Positions 3,319 to 61,091 of a stretch of 64,000 nucleotides of DNA are shown piece by piece. The stretch's first letter is position 1, and every line of letters begins with the position of its first letter. This DNA is from Lachnospiraceae bacterium MD335 (lineage in GTDB: Bacteria; Bacillota; Clostridia; Lachnospirales; Lachnospiraceae): positions 248,001-312,000 of the forward strand of contig KE159629.1 in the NCBI GenBank assembly GCA_000403335.2, in the 5' to 3' direction. Position numbers and translations under genes: made by a program. The notes beneath the pieces are model-generated. The model was not told the DNA's origin and did not search any database. It saw only the letters and a program-made list of their open reading frames with translations.

Positions 3319-5088
3319 ATGGCGGAAAAGCAAAAAAAATATGAAAAACCAAAAAACCGTAAAGGAACCATTCTGCGGCTTGCGCGTTATATGGTGCAGT
3401 ATAAATACCGGGTGCTGTTCGCCCTGGGTCTGACCGTCGCAAGCAACCTGCTCGCCCTTATGGGACCGATGCTTTCCGGCTATGCCATCGACGCGATTGA
3501 GCCGGGCGTTGGCAGGGTTGATTTTGCGCGCGTGTTTTACTATGCGGCGCTGATGGTTATCTTTTATTTGGTTTCGTCCGCGTTATCCTATGTGCTTTCC
3601 GTTCTCATGATTCATATCAGCCGCAAGGTGGTTTACAAAATGCGCGAAGATGTGTTTACGCATTTGATGGAGCTTCCGGTGGGGTATTTTGACACGCATC
3701 AGACGGGGGATATTATCAGCCGCATTTCGTATGACATTGACACGGTTAACACATCGCTTGCAAATGATTTGGTACAAATTCTCACGACGCTGATTACGGT
3801 TGTCGGGGCATTTTCCATGATGATTGCGATTTCTCCGCGGCTTGTGCTGATTTTTGCGTTTACGGTGCCGCTTTCCACGTTTTTGACAAAACTGATCACG
3901 GGAAAAACGCGTCCGCTGTTTCGGCTGCGTTCGCGTAAATTGGGAGAGTTGAACGGTTTTGTGGAGGAGATGATAACGGGGCAGAAGACACTCAAAGCAT
4001 ATCATCAGGAAGAAAATACGATTCGGAAATTTGACGGAAAAAACGAGGAGGCAGTGGAAGCGTACTATCGGGCGGAATACTATGGAAGTGTGGTAGGACC
4101 GACAGTCAATTTCATCAATAATCTTTCGCTTACGCTTGTCAGCGTGTTTGGCGCGCTGCTGTTTTTGGCGGGAAAAATGCGAATTGGCAGTATTTCGTCA
4201 TTTATTTTATACTCAAGAAAGTTCTCAGGACCGATTAACGAGGCGGCAAATATTATGAGCGAGCTGCAGTCCGCGCTTGCGGCGGCGGAACGTGTGTTTA
4301 ATATGATTGATGAGCCTGCGGAAATGGCGGACAGTGAGAACGCGGTGGAGCTTTGTCAGGTCAGGGGAGATGTACGGCTGGAAAACGTGAGCTTTGGATA
4401 TACGAAAGAGCAGCAGATTATCAAAAATCTGAACCTGCGTGCGCCGCATGGAAAACTGATTGCCATTGTGGGACCGACGGGCGCCGGAAAGACGACGCTG
4501 ATTAATCTGTTAATGCGGTTTTATGACGTGCAGGACGGGTATATTTTTGTTGACAATCGCGAAATCCGCGATGTGACGCGCACAAGCCTTCGAAAGGGGT
4601 ATGCGATGGTGTTGCAGGATACGTGGCTTTTTCAAGGGACCGTTTTTGAGAATATTGCATACGGGCGGCAGAATGCAACGCTTGAAGACGTTGTGGAGGC
4701 TGCAAAGGCTGCAAAGATCCATTCGTATATTATGCGGCTGCCGCAGGGGTATGATACGGTTTTGACGGACGAAGGGACGAATATTTCCAAAGGGCAGAAG
4801 CAGCTTTTGACGATTGCAAGGGCGATGCTTTTAGATGCTCCGATGCTGATTTTAGATGAGGCGACCTCCAACGTGGATACGCGCACGGAGCGGCAGATTC
4901 AGCAGGCGATGCGAAAACTGATGGAGCATAAGACGTGCTTTGTGATTGCGCACAGGCTCTCGACCATTCAGAATGCTGACGAAATTTTGGTGGTCAATCA
5001 CGGGGAGATTGTGGAGCAGGGCACACACGGGGCGCTGATGGAGCGGCAGGGATTTTATTATCAGCTTTATCAAGCGCAGTTTGAATAG
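3319..5088 (+). CDS. ABC exporter half-transporter, subunit B
   Basis: 589 residues: membrane domain (about 25-320), then an ATPase with Walker A GPTGAGKTT, Walker B MLILDEATSNVD with the catalytic Glu, and a signature reading ISKGQKQ instead of LSGGQ. Paired with the upstream subunit, which has a normal signature but lacks the catalytic Glu, this gives complementary defects: one canonical and one degenerate ATP site in the heterodimer, as in TM287/288-like exporters. The stop of subunit A is 14 bp upstream. Substrate cannot be told; multidrug or peptide export are both possible. Confidence 0.9.
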   Translation: MAEKQKKYEKPKNRKGTILRLARYMVQYKYRVLFALGLTVASNLLALMGPMLSGYAIDAIEPGVGRVDFARVFYYAALMVIFYLVSSALSYVLSVLMIHISRKVVYKMREDVFTHLMELPVGYFDTHQTGDIISRISYDIDTVNTSLANDLVQILTTLITVVGAFSMMIAISPRLVLIFAFTVPLSTFLTKLITGKTRPLFRLRSRKLGELNGFVEEMITGQKTLKAYHQEENTIRKFDGKNEEAVEAYYRAEYYGSVVGPTVNFINNLSLTLVSVFGALLFLAGKMRIGSISSFILYSRKFSGPINEAANIMSELQSALAAAERVFNMIDEPAEMADSENAVELCQVRGDVRLENVSFGYTKEQQIIKNLNLRAPHGKLIAIVGPTGAGKTTLINLLMRFYDVQDGYIFVDNREIRDVTRTSLRKGYAMVLQDTWLFQGTVFENIAYGRQNATLEDVVEAAKAAKIHSYIMRLPQGYDTVLTDEGTNISKGQKQLLTIARAMLLDAPMLILDEATSNVDTRTERQIQQAMRKLMEHKTCFVIAHRLSTIQNADEILVVNHGEIVEQGTHGALMERQGFYYQLYQAQFE

Positions 5089-47429: not shown

Positions 47430-48227
47430 ATGAAAAAAGGAACCAGGAAGCTAATTTTTGCGGCGGCGCTGTTAATCATTGCAGTCGCGTTTACAACCCC
47501 GGCACAGGCGCATGCGCTGAACATTATTCCGATGCAGCTTGAGATGTACTCAACCTCCGCGACACCGGTCTATGCGTCGCCTGACGTTTTTTCACCGATT
47601 GTGACTTATTTGGATCGTTTTCTGAATGTACGTGTTACAGGGATTACAGAAAACGGCTTTTTCCAGGTGGATTTAAACGGTGCGTTCTATATTCCGGGAG
47701 CGTATCTTGTGCCGAAGGTAGAGAAGGAAAAATCGGCATATCAGAAGGCGCATGACAGGCTTGATGAGGTTGCGGAAATATACAGGACACAGCTTCAAAT
47801 GATGGATGGCGCCTGGTCGAAATTTGCGCTTAAAGATGTGACAGGCGATGGCGTGCCGGAGCTGATTGACGATGCCGGAAAAGAGATTTACAGTTGTTAT
47901 GACGACGGGGAATATATGCGGCTTGTAATTCTTTATTATTCGGAAAATCCGGTGACGTTTTATTATTCTAAGAACAATAATAAACTGCTTGGAAAATACA
48001 GATGGAACGATAAAGATTATTGGGAAGTCTACAACAGGGATACGACTTTTGTCCCTTGGGGACAGTTCCGCTGTGTCTCAACAGACGCATCGGCATATAA
48101 AGGAAATGCTGCTGCGATTGAGAGAGACCGCGATAACAATCAGGAAACAAGGAATGATTTGTACAACATTCTCCATGAAATGTTCGGGCTTGGGAAGGAG
48201 CATTCGGAGGAAAAGGAGAATAAATAA
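47430..48227 (+). CDS. Exported SH3-like-domain protein
   Basis: 265 residues. Signal peptide (LIFAAALLIIAVAFTTPAQA), an SH3-like unit (about 40-95, VYASPDVFSPIVTYLDRFLN to YIPGAYLVPK), then a domain starting about 130 with DVTGDGVPELID, a calcium-binding dockerin-like loop. Acts outside the membrane. Its stop overlaps the miaB start by one base. Confidence 0.75.
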   Translation: MKKGTRKLIFAAALLIIAVAFTTPAQAHALNIIPMQLEMYSTSATPVYASPDVFSPIVTYLDRFLNVRVTGITENGFFQVDLNGAFYIPGAYLVPKVEKEKSAYQKAHDRLDEVAEIYRTQLQMMDGAWSKFALKDVTGDGVPELIDDAGKEIYSCYDDGEYMRLVILYYSENPVTFYYSKNNNKLLGKYRWNDKDYWEVYNRDTTFVPWGQFRCVSTDASAYKGNAAAIERDRDNNQETRNDLYNILHEMFGLGKEHSEEKENK

Positions 48228-48403
48228 TGCATAAAGCGACAGACTGGGATAAGATTGACTTAAATTTAGCCCCGCCCACCGAAGAACCGATGCGTCAATA
48301 CTATTTTATGAAAAAAGCGCGCGAAATCGTGGCGGAGGAAAGCAGAAAGCTTGGCAGACGTCTTACGGCAGACGGCGAAACGTTCGGCTGCCCGAACGTT
48401 TGA
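48227..48403 (+). pseudogene. miaB: miaB N-terminal fragment, cut by element 3
   Basis: 58 codons: IDLNLAPPTEEPMRQYYFMK then KAREIVAEESRKLGRRL and GETFGC, the start of MiaB, the radical-SAM enzyme that methylthiolates i6A37 in tRNA. After Gly-Cys the expected QMN is replaced by PNV and a stop. The first cluster-binding cysteine is thus the last native residue. The rest should lie beyond the window, past the right end of element 3. Confidence 0.85.
48378..48401. other. Left junction of element 3, palindromic
   Basis: AAACGTTCGG CTGC CCGAACGTTT: perfect 10-bp arms. The left arm is miaB, the right arm is element DNA. The exact crossover is not fixed without the right end. Confidence 0.6.
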
Positions 48404-48464
48404 GTAAACAGGAATTAGAAATCTATTGATAAATACAAGGCTTTTCCCGGAAAGGAAAAGTTCT

Positions 48465-49831: not shown

Positions 49832-49869
49832 GGTGCCAGACGAAAATACAACAGAATGGAGAATGTACA

Positions 49870-49986
49870 ATGTACTTTAAATATTTAAAAGACGCTATGG
49901 AATACGCTGAAAAATATAGAAAAGGAATGAAAAATGTCTTCCGATATGACAATGTAGTGAAAATGTTTTATATTAGTCCGATTTAA
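49870..49986 (+). CDS. Small hypothetical protein, 38 aa
   Basis: MYFKYLKDAMEYAEKYRKGM then KNVFRYDNVVKMF. GGAG precedes the ATG. Basic and aromatic. Weak support. Confidence 0.35.
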   Translation: MYFKYLKDAMEYAEKYRKGMKNVFRYDNVVKMFYISPI

Positions 49987-50001
49987 TGGGGGGTGTGCAG
50001 T

Positions 50002-50259
50002 ATGACAATAAAAGATAGTGTAATAGCGGCATACCGGCGCGGAGAAATAAGAACCGACAGCGACTTATTCGATCTTGCCGATTCTCTCAAAATATCAACA
50101 AAGGCAGTTAGTAAAATTGTCTTTCAGGAAATGGCGGCTGGGACAGCTTGCGCCGGGTGTAAAAATATAGGATCAAGATTCTTTAATTCGCCGGCGTTTC
50201 CGTGTTCGATATGCACACGCCGCGACACGGAATTAAAAGATATGTTTGAAGCTGAATAA
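50002..50259 (+). CDS. Small zinc-binding phage protein, 85 aa
   Basis: ATG at 50002 behind GGGGGGTG. A helix-turn-helix-like stretch (SDLFDLADSLKISTKAVSKI) is followed by CAGC and CSICTR zinc pairs. Possibly a DNA-binding regulator. A terminator lies between it and the convergent LSR gene. Confidence 0.55.
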   Translation: MTIKDSVIAAYRRGEIRTDSDLFDLADSLKISTKAVSKIVFQEMAAGTACAGCKNIGSRFFNSPAFPCSICTRRDTELKDMFEAE

Positions 50260-50289: not shown

Positions 50290-52287
50290 TTATTTCTTCC
50301 GATGTTCACACGTGGCAAGCTGGCCGCCGCATATCGGACACACTTCTTTTTCACAATCGGCATGATGAAAGCGGCCGAAGCTGACGCCGCAAGCCGCACA
50401 CGCCGCGACTTTCTTCCCTTCGTATGGATCCCCAGGATCACCGACTTTCACACGGCGATAGTTTTTTCCTTTATAGCTGATTGTTCGGATCCGACAGCTT
50501 ACCGTTTTCCCGATGGTATAACCACACGCGCGGCATTTCGGAAGTTCCGCCGGCGCCGAATATACAAATTCATGTTCAAGCCCATTCACGAACCGGATCT
50601 TCTGGACGCGGCCGTCCAGGGCGACGATCTGATCGACAACCTGATCGACAAAATCTTTTAATATTTCATTATCCAGGTCAAGGCACATTTGAATATAATC
50701 AATGTGCTTTTTTGAAACTATCCGCTGGGCAACAAGGAAGGCGGACGCTTTCTTGATGAATGACAGATCCGCCAGGTCGGAGCCGTCGCCGGATTCCGTG
50801 ATTTCTGAAATCTGGCCTTCAATATCGCGGATCTTCTTTGTAAGTTCCTTTTTCTTTTTTGAAAATTCTTCTTTTGTCAAGGCTTCGGAATCATAAAGAT
50901 ATAGTTCAGTAAGCCTTGAAATGGCGTTCTGGCACTTCTCACGTTCTTTTTCCAGGATAGAACGGCGTTCTGCGATAGAAATATCGTCTTCGCCTTCTGC
51001 AAGCCCTAAATCGGGCAAATAGGCGCCCTTCCCCAGTCCGCTATATGCCAGGGCCGAAAAAGTCGCTTTAAGGCTTGATTCCGTCAATCTGGCGCCGTTG
51101 TATTCATCGCCTTTTAGAAGGGCCGCTTCCAGCTTTTCAAGGGAATCAATCTTTTTGTTTTTAAATTCCTTCTGAACACGCGCCAGGTTAGCAACATAGT
51201 TAAAAATAAAAGGGCCGATATATAAATCGCTTACAATCTTTTTATTCTCACAATCAAGCATTTTCGCCCGGCGGCCGCACCGATAATTTGAAGGCCGGAA
51301 TCCGTTTTCCCTAGCCCGATCCTTTGTCGCTATCATGCCGGAGCCGCACACGGCGCAAATTATTTTTCCGGCGAAAACGTGAGTGTGTACCGTTTCCCGT
51401 ATTTCTGACACGTCGCGCGAAGTTCCGTTTTCGTCCATGATTCTATTACACCGGTCAAATTGTTCCTTGTCAATGATTGCCGGGTGATTATTTTCCCTGA
51501 TGATCCATTCGCTTTCAGGCTTCAAGGGGCCGCGGCCGGATTCCCGGAGATTATAGCGGTATGTCCCTATATAGAAAGGGTTCCTGATTATGTCATGGAC
51601 TAATTTTGAAGACCACATTCCGCCGCGCTTCGATTTCACGTGATTGTTATTCAAGTACCGCGTCACTTGCAAGGCCGAACGTGTCTTTTCGTATTCATCG
51701 AAAATAAATTGAACAATTTTCACTTCTTCGGGATCTGGTTCAGGATATTTCGTTTCATCATTCCAGCGGAAGCCGATCGGCATACGGGCGCCGTTCCACA
51801 ATCCATTTTCCGCCCGGTCAAGCATGATCCCGGTGACACGTTCCGACGTCATGTTCCTTTCAAGTTCTGCGAAAATTAAAATGATCTTCAACATAGCTTC
51901 GCCGATGGCGGTTGAAGTGTCGAATTGTTCATTCATAGAAATAAAAGTGACGCGGTGATCCTTTAATTCCTCATACATGGCCGCGAAATCCAGAAGGTTC
52001 CTTGAAATTCTGTCAACCTTCCAAACGATGATATGTGAAAATTCGCCGGCCCGGACGCGGTTCATCATATCTTGAAAATGCGGCCGATCGGTATTCTTCG
52101 CCGAATAGCCGTCGTCCTCGAATATCTGGAAGGCGTCTATTCCCATAAGTTTACAATATTCTTTTAGCTTCTTCCGCTGGAATGGAAGACTGTCTTTGTC
52201 TACCTGGTAACGTGTAGACACGCGGACGTATAACGCCGCCTTCTTTTTCGTCCATAGCCGGACGGGCTTATTTCTTTTTGATCTCAA
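50290..52287 (-). CDS. Large serine recombinase of element 3
   Basis: 665 residues. Catalytic Ser in AALYVRVSTRYQVDKDS; IIVWKVDRISRNLLDF; recombinase domain (about 170-290); zinc ribbon KIICAVCGSGMI with CGRRAKMLDC; coiled coil (about 470-520); and an unusual C-terminal set of Cys pairs (CRACGY, CAACGV, CPICGG). It probably integrates the element at miaB. Terminators flank it. The frame is intact. Confidence 0.92.
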   Translation of the reverse strand: MRSKRNKPVRLWTKKKAALYVRVSTRYQVDKDSLPFQRKKLKEYCKLMGIDAFQIFEDDGYSAKNTDRPHFQDMMNRVRAGEFSHIIVWKVDRISRNLLDFAAMYEELKDHRVTFISMNEQFDTSTAIGEAMLKIILIFAELERNMTSERVTGIMLDRAENGLWNGARMPIGFRWNDETKYPEPDPEEVKIVQFIFDEYEKTRSALQVTRYLNNNHVKSKRGGMWSSKLVHDIIRNPFYIGTYRYNLRESGRGPLKPESEWIIRENNHPAIIDKEQFDRCNRIMDENGTSRDVSEIRETVHTHVFAGKIICAVCGSGMIATKDRARENGFRPSNYRCGRRAKMLDCENKKIVSDLYIGPFIFNYVANLARVQKEFKNKKIDSLEKLEAALLKGDEYNGARLTESSLKATFSALAYSGLGKGAYLPDLGLAEGEDDISIAERRSILEKEREKCQNAISRLTELYLYDSEALTKEEFSKKKKELTKKIRDIEGQISEITESGDGSDLADLSFIKKASAFLVAQRIVSKKHIDYIQMCLDLDNEILKDFVDQVVDQIVALDGRVQKIRFVNGLEHEFVYSAPAELPKCRACGYTIGKTVSCRIRTISYKGKNYRRVKVGDPGDPYEGKKVAACAACGVSFGRFHHADCEKEVCPICGGQLATCEHRKK

Positions 52288-53834: not shown

Positions 53835-54287
53835 CTAACCGGTTTTCGTTCCTTCATCGGGCTTCTTTGCCGGCGGAAATTGCTTTTCCAGGTCGCCGGG
53901 CGTCCTGGGCGCTTCCGCTATGTAGTCAATGCTTTCTTCTGAATCAATCACACGATAGAAGAAATCACGAACCTTTTCCCGTTGTGCTGGGGCAAGTTTC
54001 AAATATTCATATACCAGATTGAAACTAAAATCGTCAAGGTCAAATTCCTTCTTTAATTGTTCCATAGTGCCGGAAGGCGTTTTTGAAAACATTTCCCCGG
54101 CGCCGGTTCGGAGCCAATCTTCCGATACACTAAACTTTTGACATATATCTAATATTGTCCTATCGGAAGGATTTCGCTTTCCGACTTCGATCAAAGAAAT
54201 AGAATTTCGTTTTAAATTTAACATTTCCGCAAAGTCTGATTGACTTAACTTCAATGTTTCACGAAGTTCTTTGATTCTTCCGTTCAT
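53835..54287 (-). CDS. XRE-family phage repressor (CI-like)
   Basis: 150 residues. Helix-turn-helix RIKELRETLKLSQSDFAEML then LKRNSISLIEVGKRNPSDRT; a helical C-terminal part without the Ser-Lys peptidase of LexA-type repressors. Divergent from 54455, with operators over both promoters, so it probably sets the lysogenic state. Confidence 0.88.
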   Translation of the reverse strand: MNGRIKELRETLKLSQSDFAEMLNLKRNSISLIEVGKRNPSDRTILDICQKFSVSEDWLRTGAGEMFSKTPSGTMEQLKKEFDLDDFSFNLVYEYLKLAPAQREKVRDFFYRVIDSEESIDYIAEAPRTPGDLEKQFPPAKKPDEGTKTG

Positions 54288-54311
54288 TGGATCACCTTCT
54301 TTCTGACATTA

Positions 54312-54427
54312 TCATAACGCCTAAATGCTTACTTGTCAACAAAAATATTTTGATTATTTTTGAAAAAGTGTTGACAAGTAATATTTTCAGTGCTATTATA
54401 TGCTTACAAGTTAGCAATGACTTGTTG
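54312..54427. promoter_or_regulatory. Divergent phage promoters with shared operators
   Basis: Plus strand: TTGACA (54371), 17 bp, TATTAT (54394). Minus strand: TTGACA (54340-54335), 17 bp, TATGAT (54317-54312). TTACTTGTCAACA (54329-54341) and TGTTGACAAGTAA (54369-54381) are perfect 13-bp mirror arms over both -35 boxes. A third dyad ACAAGT/ACTTGT stands at about 54405-54425. Confidence 0.85.
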
Positions 54428-54454
54428 ACAAACCAAAAGAAAGGGGGCCTTTGA

Positions 54455-54625
54455 ATGGCTGACAAAATGGCTATAAAGGAAGCGAATGTCACAACCGTAA
54501 ATGAAGCGGACAGAACATTCATTCGTTCCTTGATGTCACTTTCCCCTGAAAAGAAGATTCTTGTCAAGGGAATCTTGATCGGAATGGATTTACAGGAGAA
54601 GCCGGCAACCGTCGCGGCCCGATAG
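54455..54625 (+). CDS. Small early phage protein, 56 aa
   Basis: MADKMAIKEANVTTVNEADR, FIRSLMSLSPEKKILVKGIL then IGMDLQ. GAAAGGGGG precedes the ATG. First gene after the rightward promoter, the place of cro or an early regulator, but no helix-turn-helix is obvious. The end resembles the KGIL-G motif of small phage regulators. Confidence 0.6.
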   Translation: MADKMAIKEANVTTVNEADRTFIRSLMSLSPEKKILVKGILIGMDLQEKPATVAAR

Positions 54626-54758
54626 TCACGGGCCGGACGTTGAAAATACAGCCCAGGAAACCGACTGCAATCGGGCGGCTGATTTTGGAAATAAGCGCAC
54701 ATTGAAAACTGAATAGTGAAAATGTAACTGGAAATAAGCAAAAAAGGAAGAAAGGAAA

Positions 54759-55616
54759 ATGAATAAAAATAGTTATCGAATCCACGACACTACTATTTAT
54801 TATCGGAACAATACCGTAAAGGCACCGAAGAACGCTGATTCCTGGCGGTTCAAATATCCACATTTCGGAACGCTTCACCGGTTGTTCAATATGCTTCGCG
54901 CTGAAGGATTCACGATTGAAAACGACGCCGAAGTCGCAAAGTGTATCAGGGACGATTATTACATAGGCCGCCGCGGCGATCTGGAACTTTACGCGCACCG
55001 TTACCCGGCCGGGTTTGAAATCATGTTCTTTCAGAATATCGTCATAGAGAACCGGAACGGCGGAAGGTATGATTTCGATAAATTTCAGAAAATGCCCTAT
55101 ATGATCCGCCTTCGGTTTATAAAGTACCGGGATAAGATCATCGCCCTTCTGAAATCCGTTGAAGAACTGGAAGACGACACGAAACAAAGTCCGCGGCTTG
55201 CGGAAGAATGGATCAAGGCCAGATATGCGGAAGAATGGCATCACGAACAGACGGACACAAATTTTCTTCTGTCTGACCTGGACGGCCAGACGCAACCGGA
55301 ATATAACGGCCGCGATCGGGAAGGGCTGACGCTTCACAATGGCGATATAAAGTATTTCAGGGCTTGGAACGGCCGCATTTACCGCGGCCGCGTCTATCAC
55401 AATATCAATAATATGTGGTGGGTTATCGTTGACCGGTTCACGGTTAAAAACGTGGCGTCGTTTGAATTATTCGACTTGAAGCCGGAAGACAACCGGCGGC
55501 GCCAGGCCCGGCCGCGGATCCCGGAAGCGTACCAGAAGCGGCGCCAGGCAATCGAAGACACGAAGACAAAGGAACTTATGAACGAACTTCGCCGGCGCGG
55601 CGTGAAAGTAGGGTGA
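54759..55616 (+). CDS. Hypothetical phage protein, 285 aa
   Basis: Begins MNKNSYRIHDTTIYYRNNTV; contains FKYPHFGTLHRLFNMLRAEG and a C-terminal basic helix (KTKELMNELRRRGVKVG). Soluble and rich in Arg and Tyr, so it may bind nucleic acid. AAGGAAAA precedes the ATG. No family recognised. Confidence 0.6.
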   Translation: MNKNSYRIHDTTIYYRNNTVKAPKNADSWRFKYPHFGTLHRLFNMLRAEGFTIENDAEVAKCIRDDYYIGRRGDLELYAHRYPAGFEIMFFQNIVIENRNGGRYDFDKFQKMPYMIRLRFIKYRDKIIALLKSVEELEDDTKQSPRLAEEWIKARYAEEWHHEQTDTNFLLSDLDGQTQPEYNGRDREGLTLHNGDIKYFRAWNGRIYRGRVYHNINNMWWVIVDRFTVKNVASFELFDLKPEDNRRRQARPRIPEAYQKRRQAIEDTKTKELMNELRRRGVKVG

Positions 55617-55618
55617 AA

Positions 55619-55855
55619 ATGGAAGATATGAATAAGAGCCAGGCGGAAAGCCAGGAACCGGAAGTTGAAAACTTCATCGTCAATTATAGCGATGGCACAC
55701 AACGGATCATTGACAAGGGCTTCTTCTGCGAAATCAAGGAAGAAGAAAACGGAGAAAGCGTCTTGTCCTTCATCATGGCGAATTGTGCCGGCCGCGATCT
55801 GGAAACTATTATTCTTGGTTGCGTCCAGTTGGGCGTTAAGCTGGGAATGATTTAA
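55619..55855 (+). CDS. Hypothetical phage protein, 78 aa
   Basis: Acidic: EDMNKSQAESQEPEVENFIV, then KGFFCEIKEEENGESVLSF. The start is unsure between GTG 55613, ATG 55619 and ATG 55628. It follows the previous gene with no gap. Confidence 0.55.
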   Translation: MEDMNKSQAESQEPEVENFIVNYSDGTQRIIDKGFFCEIKEEENGESVLSFIMANCAGRDLETIILGCVQLGVKLGMI

Positions 55856-55885
55856 TAAATCAACCAAAAGAAAGGAAATAAGCAC

Positions 55886-56842
55886 ATGAAAGAACACAAG
55901 TTTGTAAAAGAAACGCCGGTTACTATCTACGACAAAGACGGGTTCCCGTCTATGATGTTAAAACTTGAAAACACGGCGCCGTCGAAGGAAGAAGCGGATC
56001 CGATTTTCATTGTCAAGGGCCAGGAATACGATTCAGTTTATCTTTCCCGTTTCGTCAATTCCATTATGGACGGCCACGCGGTAAGCCTTCCCTTTATGAA
56101 TCCGGCCGTTTCCCTGGATATGGACGAAATGATCGCCGCTTGCAAGGCGAAGGGCGAAAAGTGGCACTTGCTGACTATCCGTGAATGGCGGTACATAGTT
56201 GACCGGGCGATCGAAGGGCTTCACGGGAATACTTCTTTCGGAAGTTCCCACAAAGACGCCAGCGAACGCGGAATCAAGGGGAATTATGGCCTGACGCTGA
56301 CCGGTTCCGGCCCGGCGTCCTGGTTCCATAATGGCGATAAGGAAACCGGGATCGCCGATGTTGTCGGCCTTGTCTGGAAGACCGTCGCCGGCCTTCGCCT
56401 GAAAAATGGCGTCCTGGAATACATGAAGGACAATGACGCCGCGGCGCCTGACGCTGATTTGTCGGCGGATAGCAAGGAATTTTTACAGATTATGATTGAC
56501 GGCCTTCCGGTAAGAATCGGATCCGACGGCGACGGTTTGAAGATTACCACGGACGAAGTATCGGAATATGACTGGGACGAAAGACGGAATGTCGAAGTTG
56601 ACCTTGTAAACGTGCCGGAGATTTTGAAGGATTTAGGGATCGTCACTGACAACATGGAAGAAAGCCGCGAATGGCTGGCCGCGGATCCTGAACTGGAAGA
56701 ATGTGTCTGTTACGTGGGCGCCGGCTTCAGCAACACGTCGCACTCTGGGCCTTCCGCGTTGAATTTGAACAACGTCCGGTCGGACGTGAACACGGACATC
56801 GGCTTCTTTTCCGCTTTATTGGGGGAACCTGTGATCCGATAA
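55886..56842 (+). CDS. C-type-lectin-fold protein, DGR-target-like
   Basis: 318 residues. The middle WHLLTIREWRYIVDRAIEGL, then HGNTSFGSS, and the end CYVGAGFSNTSHSGPSALNL, NNVRSDVNTDIGFFSALLG match the formylglycine-enzyme/C-type lectin fold of proteins diversified by retroelements. The C-terminal 45 codons hold several AAC codons, as in variable regions. No reverse transcriptase or template repeat is visible in the window. AAGAAAGGAAA precedes the ATG. Confidence 0.65.
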   Translation: MKEHKFVKETPVTIYDKDGFPSMMLKLENTAPSKEEADPIFIVKGQEYDSVYLSRFVNSIMDGHAVSLPFMNPAVSLDMDEMIAACKAKGEKWHLLTIREWRYIVDRAIEGLHGNTSFGSSHKDASERGIKGNYGLTLTGSGPASWFHNGDKETGIADVVGLVWKTVAGLRLKNGVLEYMKDNDAAAPDADLSADSKEFLQIMIDGLPVRIGSDGDGLKITTDEVSEYDWDERRNVEVDLVNVPEILKDLGIVTDNMEESREWLAADPELEECVCYVGAGFSNTSHSGPSALNLNNVRSDVNTDIGFFSALLGEPVIR

Positions 56843-56909
56843 CTGTAAATCTGTATATCCGCCCGATAGGGCGGCTAATAGGCCCAGGAAGGGCCGGAAA
56901 GGTGGAACC

Positions 56910-57416
56910 ATGAGAAAAGCAACGAACCGCACTTCCTACAAGGAAGTATGCGCCTTATACGAAGCCACGGGGCGCACTGATTACCGCTTGCAGACGGTCA
57001 ATGATATTAAAGTCATTCACGGCTTCGACATTCTGGAAACAACCGGCTATGAAGACTTGACGGAAGAACAGAAGGAAACCTTCGTCGCCTATGTCCTGAA
57101 ACACTTGAACAGTGTCGGCATGAACACAAGAATTACAATGTTTCCGTATTCCGTCCACTATGTACGGGAAATCAGTCTTTTAAGCGCCGAAACATGGTGC
57201 GAAGAAGATCAAAGAAATTACCGCGAAGAACTGGGCCGGGAATATCTGATTGTGAAGGCGAACGGCAAAACGAAAAAGTGGAAAAAATTCTTCTACGAAG
57301 AAGGAACTGAAAACAAAGTTGATTCCAGGCGCGAAACGGAATTTCTTCGCGTCGATTGGAAGTACGGAACCGGCCGCGAATGGTTCCACGTTTCAAAGGA
57401 ATTAAGCTATTACTAG
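56910..57416 (+). CDS. Hypothetical phage protein, 168 aa
   Basis: MRKATNRTSYKEVCALYEAT, GFDILETTGYEDLTEEQKET, EWFHVSKELSYY. GGAAAGGTGG precedes the ATG. Upstream lies a CCGCCC/GGGCGG hairpin (about 56860-56873). No family recognised. Confidence 0.6.
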   Translation: MRKATNRTSYKEVCALYEATGRTDYRLQTVNDIKVIHGFDILETTGYEDLTEEQKETFVAYVLKHLNSVGMNTRITMFPYSVHYVREISLLSAETWCEEDQRNYREELGREYLIVKANGKTKKWKKFFYEEGTENKVDSRRETEFLRVDWKYGTGREWFHVSKELSYY

Positions 57417-57431
57417 AAAGGCGGTGAAGCG

Positions 57432-57599
57432 ATGGAAAAGAGCCAGAACACGGCCAGCAAGGCGGAGCGCCTGAAAGATATTCTGAAAGGCTTCGGAATA
57501 AAGACAGCTAAAGACCTTGACGAAGCGTTGTCCGGCGCCTTGGGCGCTATGACGATCGGCATTATGACAGAAAGACCGGTTCAGAAAAATTCGGCATAA
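57432..57599 (+). CDS. Small phage protein, 55 aa
   Basis: ASKAERLKDILKGFGIKTAK then DLDEALSGALGAM. AAGGCGGTGAAG precedes the ATG. It starts 16 bp after the previous stop. No family recognised. Confidence 0.55.
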   Translation: MEKSQNTASKAERLKDILKGFGIKTAKDLDEALSGALGAMTIGIMTERPVQKNSA

Positions 57600-57606
57600 T
57601 AAAAGC

Positions 57607-57646
57607 GGCGCAACGTGGAAAGATTGGAACCCTGACACGTTGCGCC
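57607..57646 (+). terminator. Hairpin after 57599
   Basis: GGCGCAACGTG pairs perfectly with CACGTTGCGCC (11 bp). No T run, so termination is uncertain. Confidence 0.5.
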
Positions 57647-57706
57647 TAAACGGCCACGCGCGAAAAGCGCCGAAGCCTTTAATAATATTAAGGGCTGGAA
57701 AGGAAA

Positions 57707-57937
57707 ATGTCAATAGGGGAATACGAGAAAAGACACCCATTTTATAGCGATGGAATAACAAAAGTGACGGATCCGTTCTGGCGGTCGGTCTGTAAGAAAT
57801 GCGGACACGTGTTTCTTGCTTGCCTGGCGACTTCCAGTTGTCCGGTATGCGGAAGCAACGAAGCGGATCGGCGCCTGGGCGACATTCCCTTCGATCAAGT
57901 TGTGGCCGAACGTGGTTTTCCGATTAAATCCGATTAA
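57707..57937 (+). CDS. Zinc-ribbon protein, 76 aa
   Basis: CKKCGHVFLACLATSSCPVC forms a CxxC-CxxC zinc ribbon of the rubredoxin type. GGAAAGG precedes the ATG. Its last codons lie in the first iterons of the tubC array. Function unknown. Confidence 0.65.
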   Translation: MSIGEYEKRHPFYSDGITKVTDPFWRSVCKKCGHVFLACLATSSCPVCGSNEADRRLGDIPFDQVVAERGFPIKSD

Positions 57938-57997
57938 ATCAGAGAATATCAGAGAATATCAGAGTTTATCAGAATAAATCAGAGTTTAACAGGGTTA
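57921..57997 (+). repeat. Array of 10-bp iterons, candidate tubC centromere
   Basis: About eight units in strict 10-bp register: CGATTAAATC twice, AGAGAATATC twice, AGAGTTTATC, AGAATAAATC, AGAGTTTAAC, AGGGTTA. Most units end AATC or ATC. The array lies directly before tubR and tubZ. TubR proteins bind such tandem repeats as the centromere of type III partition. Confidence 0.8.
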
Positions 57998-58012
57998 GAA
58001 AGGCGGTGAATC

Positions 58013-58261
58013 TTGAATCGGTTAGGTTTTATTATTCTTTCGATTCTTCGCCAGGAAGGAGCCACGAACAAACTTTCGTCTATGACGGTTCGTGAAATCG
58101 CTTCGGCGGAAGAATTTGGAATAAAAGAAAACACAATATTTAAAAAAATAAAGGACTTTGAACAATCCGGCTATATATGCCGCGGTCTGAAAGAGGGCCG
58201 CGCCGCCACATTTTACATAACGCCGGAAGGTTGCGAATGTCTGGAAAGGGAAAAACAATGA
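58013..58261 (+). CDS. tubR: TubR-like winged-helix protein
   Basis: 82 residues from a TTG start behind AAGGCGGTGAA. FIILSILRQEGATNKLSSMT, AEEFGIKENTIFKKIKDFEQ and a wing GLKEGRAATFYITPEG suit a winged helix like MarR or TubR. It overlaps the tubZ ATG (ATGA) and follows the iteron array, the classical tubC-tubR-tubZ order. Confidence 0.8.
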   Translation: MNRLGFIILSILRQEGATNKLSSMTVREIASAEEFGIKENTIFKKIKDFEQSGYICRGLKEGRAATFYITPEGCECLEREKQ

Positions 58262-59289
58262 AAAATAAAATTGCTTTTGTGGCAGTCGGCCAGGCCGGCG
58301 GCAACATTGGAAGACTTTTTGAACAGAAGGGCTTTTCCGTCCTTTACGTGAACACGTCCCAGGAAGATCTTGACACGCTGGATCACGCGAAGTTCAAACA
58401 CCATATCACGGGCGGCGAAGGTTGCAATAAGGACAGAAGGAAGGCGAAACAGCTTGTCGTCGATGATTTCGACAATATCGCCGCGGAAATCGAATCAAAG
58501 ATCAAGGCCGGCATGATTTTTGTTATCTTCGCCAGCGGCGGCGGAACCGGTTCGGGCGCTGGGCCGATGTTGTCGGATCTGTTAATCGACGAAGGAAAAA
58601 CGATCGGCATGATTACGATTCTTCCGGCGCCTGATGAAAGCCCGAAGTCACATATAAATTCTTACGAATGTTTTTCGGAACTGACGGAGATTTCCGGGAC
58701 GGGCGCTTGTTTTATCCTTGACAATGCGAACGGGGAAAAGCTGAACTTAAATTCCGGCTTCGTGGAAGCCTTCACGGCGTTTCTTGAAATCCCGTCGAAA
58801 CATAAGAGCGTAAAGGGGAATATCGACAAGGCAGAAATCGAAGAAACATTGAAAGCGCATGGAATGGCCGTTGTCGTGCGCCAGAAGGCCCAGGACAGCG
58901 CCGGAGTGATTCAGGCTATAAAAGATAACGCCTTCGCGCCCCTGGAAGCCGATCGGGCCGTTAAATACATTACCGCGTCAATGGCCGGGAATGTAAGCAT
59001 GGCAGACATTGAAAAGGCAATCGGGACGCCGCTTGACAACTTCCAGACGTTCAACGATGAAGAAACGATTTGTTGTGTGTCCGGGCTTTCATATCCTCAA
59101 ACGCGGCTTGATGAAATCTATAACAAGGTATCTGAAAACAAGGACACGATCAAGAAAAATCTGGCGGCAACACACGAAACCAGAATGAAAAACGATGTGA
59201 ATTTCCTTTCGGAATCAGAGCCGCCGAAGAAAAAGAGCGAAGCGCCGAAGCCCAAAACAAGGCGCGATATTATGAGCAAATATTTGTAG
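58258..59289 (+). CDS. tubZ: TubZ/FtsZ-like tubulin GTPase
   Basis: 343 residues. GQAGGNIGRLF at the N-terminus and the tubulin signature FASGGGTGSGAGP (about residue 100) bind GTP; a basic tail (KPKTRRDIMSKYL) resembles the TubZ tail that contacts TubR. TubZ forms treadmilling filaments that move DNA. The ATG at 58258 overlaps the tubR stop; longer in-frame starts lie within tubR. Distant from cell-division FtsZ. Confidence 0.9.
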   Translation: MKNKIAFVAVGQAGGNIGRLFEQKGFSVLYVNTSQEDLDTLDHAKFKHHITGGEGCNKDRRKAKQLVVDDFDNIAAEIESKIKAGMIFVIFASGGGTGSGAGPMLSDLLIDEGKTIGMITILPAPDESPKSHINSYECFSELTEISGTGACFILDNANGEKLNLNSGFVEAFTAFLEIPSKHKSVKGNIDKAEIEETLKAHGMAVVVRQKAQDSAGVIQAIKDNAFAPLEADRAVKYITASMAGNVSMADIEKAIGTPLDNFQTFNDEETICCVSGLSYPQTRLDEIYNKVSENKDTIKKNLAATHETRMKNDVNFLSESEPPKKKSEAPKPKTRRDIMSKYL

Positions 59290-59305
59290 ATTGGCGGTGA
59301 TTCTA

Positions 59306-60331
59306 TTGTCTGAAATTAGCTGGATAAAACTTCGGATTGATATGTTCGACGATGAAAAAATCAAGATCATTCAGTCCATGCCGGAAGGCGACGCGCTTCT
59401 TGTTATCTGGATCCGCCTGATCGCCCTGGCCGGCAAATGCAACGCGAACGGCCTTGTCCTGGTTGAAGACGAATTTCCGTATAGCGACGAAATGTTATCC
59501 GTTATTTTCGGGAAACCATTATCAACGGTTAGACTTGCATTAAAAACCTTTGAAAAATTCCGCATGGTAGAAACTACGCAAAAGGGAATCTACATAACGA
59601 ATTTTGAGAAACACCAGAACGTCGAAGGAATGGATCGGATCCGGGAACAAAACCGGATCCGAAAACAGCGCGAACGGGAACGGAAAAAGGCGCTTCGCCT
59701 GGAAGAATCGAAGGTTCCGTCCCTTCCTGATTTTGGCGGTGACGGTTCACGCGACGTCACACAAACGTCACGTGACACTTCACGCGAAGTCACGGAACAG
59801 AGAGAAGATAAAGAGATAGAGAAAGAAATAAATAATATATCTTCTAGCGAAGATATTGTCGGCGAAGCGCCGCCGGCCGCCCTTCCTGAACAGAAGGCGG
59901 AACGCCTGGTTTATAACCTGATTATGGACGATTATAACAAGACGTGCGCTGATTTGCCTAAAATACGGGCTATTTCAGACGCCAGGAAAAGAAGCGTCCG
60001 GGCGCTTCTGAATGAACTTGAAAATCTGAAATTTTTCCCTGGCTTCACGCCGTATGAGAAATTACACCAGATTTTCACAATGGCCCAGGAAAGCGATTTT
60101 CTGTCCGGCAGAAATAAAAAATGGGACGGTTGTTCGTTTGATTGGCTGATGAATAAATCTAACGCCTTGAAGGTGCTTGAAGGAAATTATAAAAACAAGG
60201 GGGGCTTCGATGGACACGACACAAGAATTACACAACCTGGATATAACAGCCCTGACGCGGCAGAGGTTGGAAACACTACGTCGGACGCGCTTGAACGGTT
60301 CCGGCGAAACAACGGCGGAGCCGGTCTATAA
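59306..60331 (+). CDS. Phage replisome organiser
   Basis: 341 residues from a TTG at 59306. EISWIKLRIDMFDDEKIKII and YSDEMLSVIFGKPLSTVRLA form the N-terminal winged helix of phage replisome organisers. A basic/low-complexity linker (130-185) leads to a C-terminal domain (RLVYNLIMDDYNKTCADLP). It opens the origin and recruits the helicase loader next to it. It overlaps the loader by 122 bp. Confidence 0.85.
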   Translation: MSEISWIKLRIDMFDDEKIKIIQSMPEGDALLVIWIRLIALAGKCNANGLVLVEDEFPYSDEMLSVIFGKPLSTVRLALKTFEKFRMVETTQKGIYITNFEKHQNVEGMDRIREQNRIRKQRERERKKALRLEESKVPSLPDFGGDGSRDVTQTSRDTSREVTEQREDKEIEKEINNISSSEDIVGEAPPAALPEQKAERLVYNLIMDDYNKTCADLPKIRAISDARKRSVRALLNELENLKFFPGFTPYEKLHQIFTMAQESDFLSGRNKKWDGCSFDWLMNKSNALKVLEGNYKNKGGFDGHDTRITQPGYNSPDAAEVGNTTSDALERFRRNNGGAGL

Positions 60332-61091
60332 ATGCCCGAAATGCCGTGATACTGGCTGGGAAGAAGTCAAGGGCGAAAACGATTATACTTTTATGCGCGA
60401 ATGTTCGTGTGGCTTGTTGCAACGTCAAAAAATGGATCGGAAATTAAAGTTTGCGGCTATTCCGAAGGAATTTCAGAATCAGACAGTCGAAAGTTTTATG
60501 ACGGATTGTTATTCTACGCCGCAAAATAGAGAACTGGCGCAAATGGCAAAGATTATCGCGAAAAGGTATGTCGAACAATTCGAGGAAATCCAGGAAACCG
60601 GAAAAGGGTTGTATTTTTATTCTTCCGTCAAAGGTTCAGGAAAGACGCGGCTTGCCGTTTCAATCGCAAACGATCTAATACGCCAGAAAATGATTTCCGC
60701 GAAGTTTGCGACTACGCTTCAAATTCTGGATCAGATAAAAGCAACCTGGGGAGAAATTAAAAAAGCCGGCCCGGAAGAAGGCGGATCGGAACAACAGCTT
60801 GTCAATGACATTATTTCCGTTCCCGTCCTGGTTATTGATGATATAGGCGCCGAGAATGTGAAAGACTGGGTAAACGAGAGATTTTATAATATCCTGAATG
60901 GCCGCATGATAGAGAAACGCATAACAATTTTTACTTCAAATTGCCGGATTGAAGACTTGAAACTTGACGAAAGAATCGTCAATCGAATTATAAAAATGGC
61001 ATTACCGATAGAGTTCCCGGCCGAATCTATCCGGGTATCGCTTGCCAGAAAGGAGAATAGCGATCTTCTGGATCGCTTGCTGGGTAAATAA
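60210..61091 (+). CDS. DnaC-like helicase loader ATPase
   Basis: 293 residues from ATG 60210 behind AAGGGGGG. N-terminal zinc motif CPKCRDTGWE with CSCG; Walker A VKGSGKTRLA (about 142-150); VLVIDDIGAENVKDW Walker B; sensor IFTSNCRIEDL. A DnaC/DnaI-type loader brings the replicative helicase to the phage origin. Confidence 0.88.
   Translation: MDTTQELHNLDITALTRQRLETLRRTRLNGSGETTAEPVYKCPKCRDTGWEEVKGENDYTFMRECSCGLLQRQKMDRKLKFAAIPKEFQNQTVESFMTDCYSTPQNRELAQMAKIIAKRYVEQFEEIQETGKGLYFYSSVKGSGKTRLAVSIANDLIRQKMISAKFATTLQILDQIKATWGEIKKAGPEEGGSEQQLVNDIISVPVLVIDDIGAENVKDWVNERFYNILNGRMIEKRITIFTSNCRIEDLKLDERIVNRIIKMALPIEFPAESIRVSLARKENSDLLDRLLGK

What the first reader, a model, noticed from the sequence alone, without database searches (positions are those of the whole stretch)
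57921..59289. Type III TubZRC partition unit with a 10-bp iteron centromere in an integrated element
Eight units in strict 10-bp phase precede tubR and tubZ, which overlap by 4 bp. Type III partition is known from few Bacillus plasmids and Clostridium phages. Its presence in an element that also has an LSR suggests a life both as an integrated and as a segregating plasmid-like form.
Basis: partly seen in the sequence, partly recalled or inferred. Interest (0 to 1): 0.8.

Follow-up and report, generated by a model that had tools for sequence, protein, structure and literature searches.

The report
Tubulin-like partition unit in integrated prophage
A virus sitting inside a bacterial chromosome carries a small tubulin-like DNA-moving machine, known mainly from plasmids, with two matching DNA handles far apart in its genome, and it probably works when the virus is cut out and copying itself.

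Summary
An array of seven clear and one decayed 10-bp unit (57919-57998) precedes tubR (58013-58261) and tubZ (58258-59289; 4-bp overlap). Both proteins match those of C. botulinum phage c-st in sequence and predicted fold. The element is a 51.6-kb tailed prophage with a large serine recombinase (LSR), integrated in miaB, which it re-caps with its own 5' end. The unit is widespread: 68 related loci in Clostridia genomes and viral contigs, 63 with tubR beside tubZ on the same strand. In 49 of 60 distinct upstream regions the period is significantly 10 or 20 bp, though the unit sequence differs with TubR type. New here: a second array with the same core, inverted, 39.6 kb away near the other prophage end; 6 of 10 elements whose right end was recognised have one. 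A stable plasmid-like form is not shown: this copy is integrated, no circular or plasmid relative was found, and tubRZ seems to lie in an operon behind a divergent repressor promoter. I favour a type III segrosome that moves the excised, replicating phage genome.

The parts
48227..48403 (+). Cut-off native miaB 5' fragment (58 codons); prophage junction with TG at 48389-48390
48391..48409 (.). Left phage arm of the att site; perfect 19-bp inverted copy of the right arm at window-equivalent 99927-99945
50290..52287 (-). Large serine recombinase (integrase), 665 aa
   Evidence: Pfam Resolvase, Recombinase; phrog_95 integrase
53835..54287 (-). HTH repressor-like gene, 150 aa
   Evidence: Pfam HTH_3 2.6e-14
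54311..54399 (.). Divergent promoter-like pair, minus 54339-54311 and plus 54371-54399, each 11 of 12
   Evidence: consensus scan only
57707..57937 (+). Small ORF with weak zinc-ribbon matches; its last codons overlap the array
   Evidence: below Pfam cut-offs
57919..57998 (+). First 10-bp array (tubC-like), seven clear and one decayed unit
58013..58261 (+). tubR, 82 aa winged helix, TTG start
58258..59289 (+). tubZ, 343 aa tubulin/FtsZ-like GTPase
59309..60331 (+). Replisome organiser (Phage_rep_org_N); start at 59291 also possible
   Evidence: Pfam 2.6e-46
60210..61091 (+). DnaC-like helicase loader
   Evidence: phrog_50 1.3e-53

Best explanation
A type III (TubZRC) DNA-segregation unit of an LSR-integrated temperate tailed phage. 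Shown here: TubZ and TubR family identity, the 10-bp array before tubR, integration in miaB, a second inverted array near the other prophage end, and a position just before the replisome organiser. Inferred: after induction or on first infection the phage circularises; TubR coats both arrays in 10-bp register, TubR-array complexes dock on the conserved C-terminal tip of TubZ, and TubZ filaments move or spread the excised, replicating genomes. In the lysogen the unit is probably silent and the genome is inherited with the chromosome. The second array would be a distal centromere that gives the circle two attachment points, 11.8 kb apart across attP and 39.6 kb the other way.
For: Sequence and fold. 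Architecture: tubR beside tubZ on the same strand in 63 of 68 loci with tubZ. Period 10 or 20 bp, significant, in 49 of 60 distinct upstream regions, while the unit changes together with the TubR helix type. The array goes with TubR rather than with the replisome organiser: it is there in loci with room after tubZ but no organiser found (L017, L018, L030, L033, L048, L064, L069-L071, L073), and absent in the 4 organiser-bearing loci without TubZ that had 3-4 kb upstream (L090 and L091 look alike, a fifth locus had 36 bases). Specificity: of 299 family genomes only this one has runs of the unit. Second array; arrays of one element share exact units more than arrays of different elements (0.396 against 0.179; the true pairing is the only one of 720 as good). 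Constraint: TubZ dN 0.006, dS 0.056 against L025 and 0.072, 0.954 against L004. Stage: plus promoter-like site 54371-54399 divergent from the repressor gene and no plus-strand terminator-like site from there to 57450; strong sigma-70 matches before tubR in 2 of 59 loci, 4.6 expected from shuffles.
Against: No binding, GTPase, filament, expression or excision data. The second array is missing by the strict test in 4 of 10 elements whose right end was recognised and in two complete Anaerocolumna chromosomes, so it is not general. In this prophage the two arrays share the 5-base core but no whole 10-mer. A promoter-like match (9 of 12) overlaps the second array, so a regulatory role there is open. 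Of 60 upstream regions 10 show no significant period and 1 a 16-bp period. A weak plus-strand terminator-like site (57788-57806) lies before tubR. No TubY was identified, and none was searched for with a profile. The TubR fold is also close to many MarR-type regulators.
Confidence: 0.6

Rival explanations
1. Plasmid maintenance, the first reader's reading: in part of the population the prophage lives as a circular, replicating plasmid and TubZRC partitions it at cell division.
For: The best characterised relative, c-st, is a plasmid prophage with TubZ and TubR (PMC8026635, passage). A 190-aa tyrosine recombinase that might resolve dimers is present (the use is a guess).
Against: This copy is integrated; no plasmid record with a close TubZ, no circular ends in 6 records tested; tubRZ seems to be read from a repressor-controlled promoter; three genomes hold two such elements with similar units, which would be expected to clash as plasmids (inference).
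Confidence: 0.22
2. Regulation only: TubR on the array controls the tubRZ-replisome organiser operon and sets replication, without DNA movement.
For: tubRZ and the organiser are closely spaced here and in 37 of 60 loci with room; TubR is a repressor in known systems (PMC5016525, PMC7762940, passages).
Against: tubZ is under strong constraint and would have no role; sigma-70-like promoters are not enriched at the array; the second array lies 39.6 kb from tubRZ at the end of convergent genes.
Confidence: 0.1
3. The array is the replication origin, bound by the replisome organiser.
For: Array and organiser gene are 1.3 kb apart; iterated origins are common (recalled).
Against: Arrays occur without the organiser gene and the organiser without arrays; the second array is far away.
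Confidence: 0.03
4. Inert cargo: a captured partition unit with no present use.
For: Integrated DNA needs no partition.
Against: Low dN/dS, retention of order and 10-bp step across divergent lineages.
Confidence: 0.04

Closest known systems
TubZRC of Clostridium botulinum plasmid prophage c-st (TubZ 3v3t/4xcq, TubR 6tey)
   Same: Best sequence and fold match for both proteins; phage-borne tubRZ
   Different: c-st is a 186-kb circular plasmid prophage with one Xer-family tyrosine recombinase (PMC8026635, passage); here a 51.6-kb LSR prophage in the chromosome, the unit directly before a replisome organiser, and a second array far off. A split c-st centromere with two iteron types is recalled, from no call
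TubZRC of Bacillus plasmids pBtoxis, pBc10987, pBsph
   Different: Plasmids; blocks within a single locus as that review describes them; a 12-bp pBtoxis unit is recalled. The three plasmid TubZ hits found are 22-27% identical
AlpAC-alpS of Corynebacterium glutamicum prophage CGP3
   Same: Filament protein, adaptor and upstream repeats in an integrated prophage; induced early on excision; needed for efficient replication of circular phage DNA (PMC4446434, abstract and passages)
   Different: Actin-like filament and a different adaptor
PhuZ of jumbo phages
   Same: Phage tubulin that positions phage DNA (PMC4446434, passage)
   Different: Weaker family match (phrog_4733 4.8e-11 against 2.2e-33 for phrog_17961); no tubR-centromere pair in PhuZ phages (recalled)

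Membership tests
Type III (TubZRC) partition system | TubZ-type tubulin/FtsZ GTPase | tested here: met
   Pfam TubZ_C_3 8e-21; c-st TubZ 4e-35; fold 3v3t E 5e-19
Type III (TubZRC) partition system | TubR-type winged-helix protein encoded directly before tubZ | tested here: met
   6tey 4.9e-8 by sequence and first by fold; 4-bp overlap
Type III (TubZRC) partition system | Iterated centromere-like repeats before tubRZ | tested here: met
Type III (TubZRC) partition system | TubR binds the repeats; TubZ hydrolyses GTP and forms filaments | not testable with these tools
   Needs bench work; invariant GGGTGSG and N188-D190-E193 residues fit
Type III (TubZRC) partition system | TubY regulator gene nearby | not tested
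   No TubY profile at hand; the neighbours scanned bore no such name
Type III (TubZRC) partition system | Stabilises an extrachromosomal replicon | tested here: inconclusive
   This copy is integrated; no plasmid or circular form found; the excised state cannot be seen in an assembly
Phage-plasmid (c-st/P1 type) | Lysogen is an extrachromosomal plasmid | tested here: not met
   This copy lies in a 950,646-base contig inside miaB
LSR-integrated temperate tailed phage | LSR, att sites, structural and lysis genes | tested here: met
   LSR; 19-bp dyad arms around TG; terminase, portal, capsid, tape measure, baseplate, endolysin
PhuZ | Closest family is PhuZ | tested here: not met
   phrog_17961 and c-st TubZ score far better

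The most novel reading that the evidence does not exclude
In a large group of ordinary-sized, chromosome-integrating phages of Lachnospiraceae and other Clostridia, TubZRC is not a plasmid-maintenance device but a repressor-controlled lytic-stage spindle: TubZ filaments pull replicating circles by two inverted centromeres on either side of attP, and TubR bridging of the two arrays also brings the prophage ends together, so that the same segrosome could assist excision.
Probability: 0.25. Interest if true: 0.8.

Novelty: new variant of a known kind. Interest (0 to 1): 0.6.

Why it matters
Type III partition has been studied on a handful of plasmids and one plasmid prophage. Here is a family of dozens of loci, many in phages with an LSR, with a fixed 10-bp step, several unit types that go with TubR types, and in some a natural second array tens of kilobases away. 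That makes three open points testable: how TubR reads and spreads on DNA, why a phage that rides in the chromosome keeps a DNA-moving filament, and what a split, inverted centromere does.

Tried and rejected
Replication-origin, operator-only, plasmid and relic readings: see the rivals. Chance array: rejected. Coding repeat: rejected; the first array is intergenic apart from the last codons of the zinc-ribbon-like ORF and the second lies between ORFs.

Redone tests: the first period test used TubR starts that lay too far upstream in some loci (for example L007); one search is the count used. The first pairing test cut the first array of G301 short; redone. The TubR dN/dS value against L005 is misframed and not used. 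L105 was fetched as a right end but held no recognised right-end gene, and L099 likewise, so both are kept out of the 6 of 10.

Collection scan for four units: 101 stretches matched. Of the 79 loci L106-L184, 10 carry TubR and TubZ in the fetched DNA; L110 and L115 are second arrays of G306 and G301, and L184 lies on the contig of L074; L111, L135 and L152 look like the same unit without TubZ in the fetched DNA; by eye most others are short tandem repeats of other kinds. 18 pattern-bearing records and 3 organiser controls were asked for TubZ: 1 of 21 had it (L143).

Literature: searches (25 of 208 papers listed; none; 3 of 4 listed). No listed title or abstract start, and no passage I read, reports TubZRC in LSR-integrated phages or in Lachnospiraceae prophages; a passage in PMC8597652 ties viral tubulin/FtsZ genes to non-integrated prophages. 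The library holds open-licence papers only; two primary papers asked for were not held. IME8 paper: its tubZ is on a plasmid (passages).

Full report
Observation. The array runs from 57919 to 57998: TCCGATTAAA, TCCGATTAAA, TCAGAGAATA, TCAGAGAATA, TCAGAGTTTA, TCAGAATAAA, TCAGAGTTTA and a decayed eighth unit. tubR (58013-58261) and tubZ (58258-59289) follow with a 4-bp overlap. Four-unit matches occur 4 times in the window and never in 100 shuffles.

Identity. TubZ: Pfam TubZ_C_3 8e-21 and Tubulin 4.1e-15; c-st TubZ 4e-35; the AlphaFold2 model (pLDDT 70.3, pTM 0.75, 15 rows) has c-st TubZ 3v3t and 4xcq as its first two fold matches. In the 15-row alignment the GGGTGSG loop, the stretch G187-N188-I189-D190 with A192-E193, and the tail residues R336, D337, M339, K341, Y342, L343 are invariant. 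The tail tip of c-st TubZ is reported to contact TubRC and TubY (PMC5322520, passages). TubR: 6tey 4.9e-8; model pLDDT 90.6 (25 rows); first fold match 6tey, TubR of pBM400 fourth, with many MarR-type regulators close behind.

The element. Window 48227-48403 is a miaB start that stops after 58 codons; on the other side (window-equivalent 99784-101232) a miaB frame is complete but begins with a different 5' end. In 6 of the 7 other same-genus genomes searched the homologous fragment opens an intact 491-503-aa frame; the seventh and the four genomes of other families had no match. The junctions are TTCGGC-TG-CCCGAACG (TG at 48389) and TTCGGG-TG-TCAG (TG at 99946); the phage arms form a perfect 19-bp dyad around TG, as is usual for an LSR attP (recalled). 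The prophage is thus about 51,557 bp. It holds terminase, portal, protease, capsid, tape measure, tail, baseplate and endolysin genes and a 190-aa tyrosine recombinase. Relatives L003 and L066 also have the miaB start at their left end, and L096 and L097 run into a near-complete miaB at the right; L024 and L025, 94-99% identical to this prophage, sit elsewhere.

Relatives. Scans gave 17 viral loci, 32 genome loci, 30 viral loci by profile, overlapping the first set, and 7 of 299 family genomes including this one. Genome titles are Lachnospiraceae, Clostridiaceae, Blautia, Anaerocolumna, Herbinix, Cellulosilyticum and other Clostridia, unnamed bacteria and one Izemoplasmatales MAG. Dropped before counting: L001 (copy of the window), L002 (weak host FtsZ-like match) and the 362-base L074. 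Of the 68 loci left, 63 have TubR beside TubZ on the same strand; L010, L019, L047, L059 and L075 do not, the first four being cut or partial. An LSR homologue lies in the fetched flank in 20 of 42 loci with at least 9.5 kb upstream, and a Recombinase domain in 13 of 18 viral records searched whole. The replisome organiser follows tubZ directly in 37 of 60 loci with room.

The 10-bp rule. Of 64 upstream regions read (the window and 63 loci) 4 were duplicates. Of the 60 left, 50 have a significant period (at most 1 of 100 shuffles as good): 29 at 10, 20 at 20 and 1 at 16 bp; 10 have none (L046, L049, L050, L052, L054, L055, L057, L060, L061, L072). Apart from the partial L055 these ten have TubZ at most 53% identical to this one. 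Units differ: mostly AAATCAGAGT (consensus of 290 units from 36 distinct arrays), TCCGA in L143, TGAAAT in L048 and L069, AT-rich in L018 and L070, alternating TATGAAA and TAATCC in L071 and L073. The TubR helix region differs in step: NTxxK, VTLHRR, QNLFxR, DTLYRR. This follows lineages and is not an independent-contrast test. It suggests that spacing is the fixed property and that TubR reads the unit.

Second array. Reading 56 kb beyond the window, the same core recurs as six units on the minus strand at window-equivalent 97580-97639 (C13:345580-345639), between the endolysin gene and a leftward set of small genes. Terminator-like sites face it from both sides (plus 97425-97451, minus 97667-97648), and a 9-of-12 promoter-like match overlaps it (consensus matches only). 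Ten elements had their right end recognised by homologues of this prophage's right-end genes: 6 have a second array of four or more units (window, L095, L096, L097, L098, L100), all inverted to the first and at the same place; 4 do not (L101-L104). Window, L098 and L100 are near-identical, so the six are four lineages. L099, right end not recognised, has one in direct orientation about 24 kb away; L105, likewise not recognised, has none. G351 has an inverted three-unit match 38 kb off, and L143 a 12-unit array right after tubZ. Two complete Anaerocolumna chromosomes have only the first array. Over six elements (window, G322, G319, G301, G323, G336) exact units are shared more within than between elements, 0.396 against 0.179, the true pairing being the only one of 720 that good; this prophage itself shares none.

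Specificity. In 299 family genomes 34 have a three-unit match; only this genome has overlapping runs, the other 33 have isolated matches, and the six other TubZ-bearing genomes of the set have none of this unit type.

How it works. In known type III systems TubR binds the repeats and represses tubRZ, and the assembled complex binds the TubZ tail and tracks the shrinking filament end (PMC5016525, PMC7762940, passages). I infer the same here. For the stage: the repressor gene and the early genes diverge around 54287-54455 with two 11-of-12 promoter matches back to back, and none of the six terminator-like sites found at 54000-57450 is on the plus strand. Before tubR, strong sigma-70 matches are no commoner than in shuffles, 2 of 59 loci against 4.6; in the window the only plus-strand match at 57400-58400 is a 9-of-12 one inside tubR, and a weak terminator-like site at 57788-57806 is an obstacle to read-through. 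So tubRZ is probably read from the early promoter after induction. CGP3 AlpAC is the precedent (PMC4446434, abstract and passages). All this is inference from sequence; an own promoter of another type is possible.

Verdict. Real, and a new variant of a known kind: TubZRC in an integrated LSR phage, with a distal inverted centromere-like array. The plasmid-like life is open, not shown.

Noticed in passing
55886-56842 (variable repeat about 56713-56854); template about window-equivalent 93237-93353, reverse transcriptase 93612-94736: Diversity-generating retroelement with two variable repeats, one in a late gene (91646-92716) and one about 36 kb away in an early gene near tubRZ; by eye the differences fall at template adenines.
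   Followed up: partly
48227-48403 and window-equivalent 99784-101232: Integration inside the miaB codons for TFGCQMN; the phage supplies a replacement miaB 5' end.
   Followed up: yes
window-equivalent 68972-69544: 190-aa tyrosine recombinase (phrog_216); Phage_integrase domains occur in 16 of 18 viral records searched. Possible dimer resolution, untested.
   Followed up: no
L025+L031, L030+L032, L049+L050: Three genomes each carry two TubZ loci.
   Followed up: no
57607-57646: Perfect 11-bp inverted repeat; RNA hairpin z -2.58, 3 of 200 shuffles as good.
   Followed up: no
L024:1-600: A near-identical prophage inserted in what reads, by eye, like another phage's structural gene rather than miaB.
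   Followed up: no
L094 about 3702-3800: 11-bp repeat near the replisome-organiser match of a phage without TubZ, possibly its origin.
   Followed up: no
49832-50252: About 420 bp with a small ORF (49993-50259) present here but absent from L003, L024 and L025.
   Followed up: no
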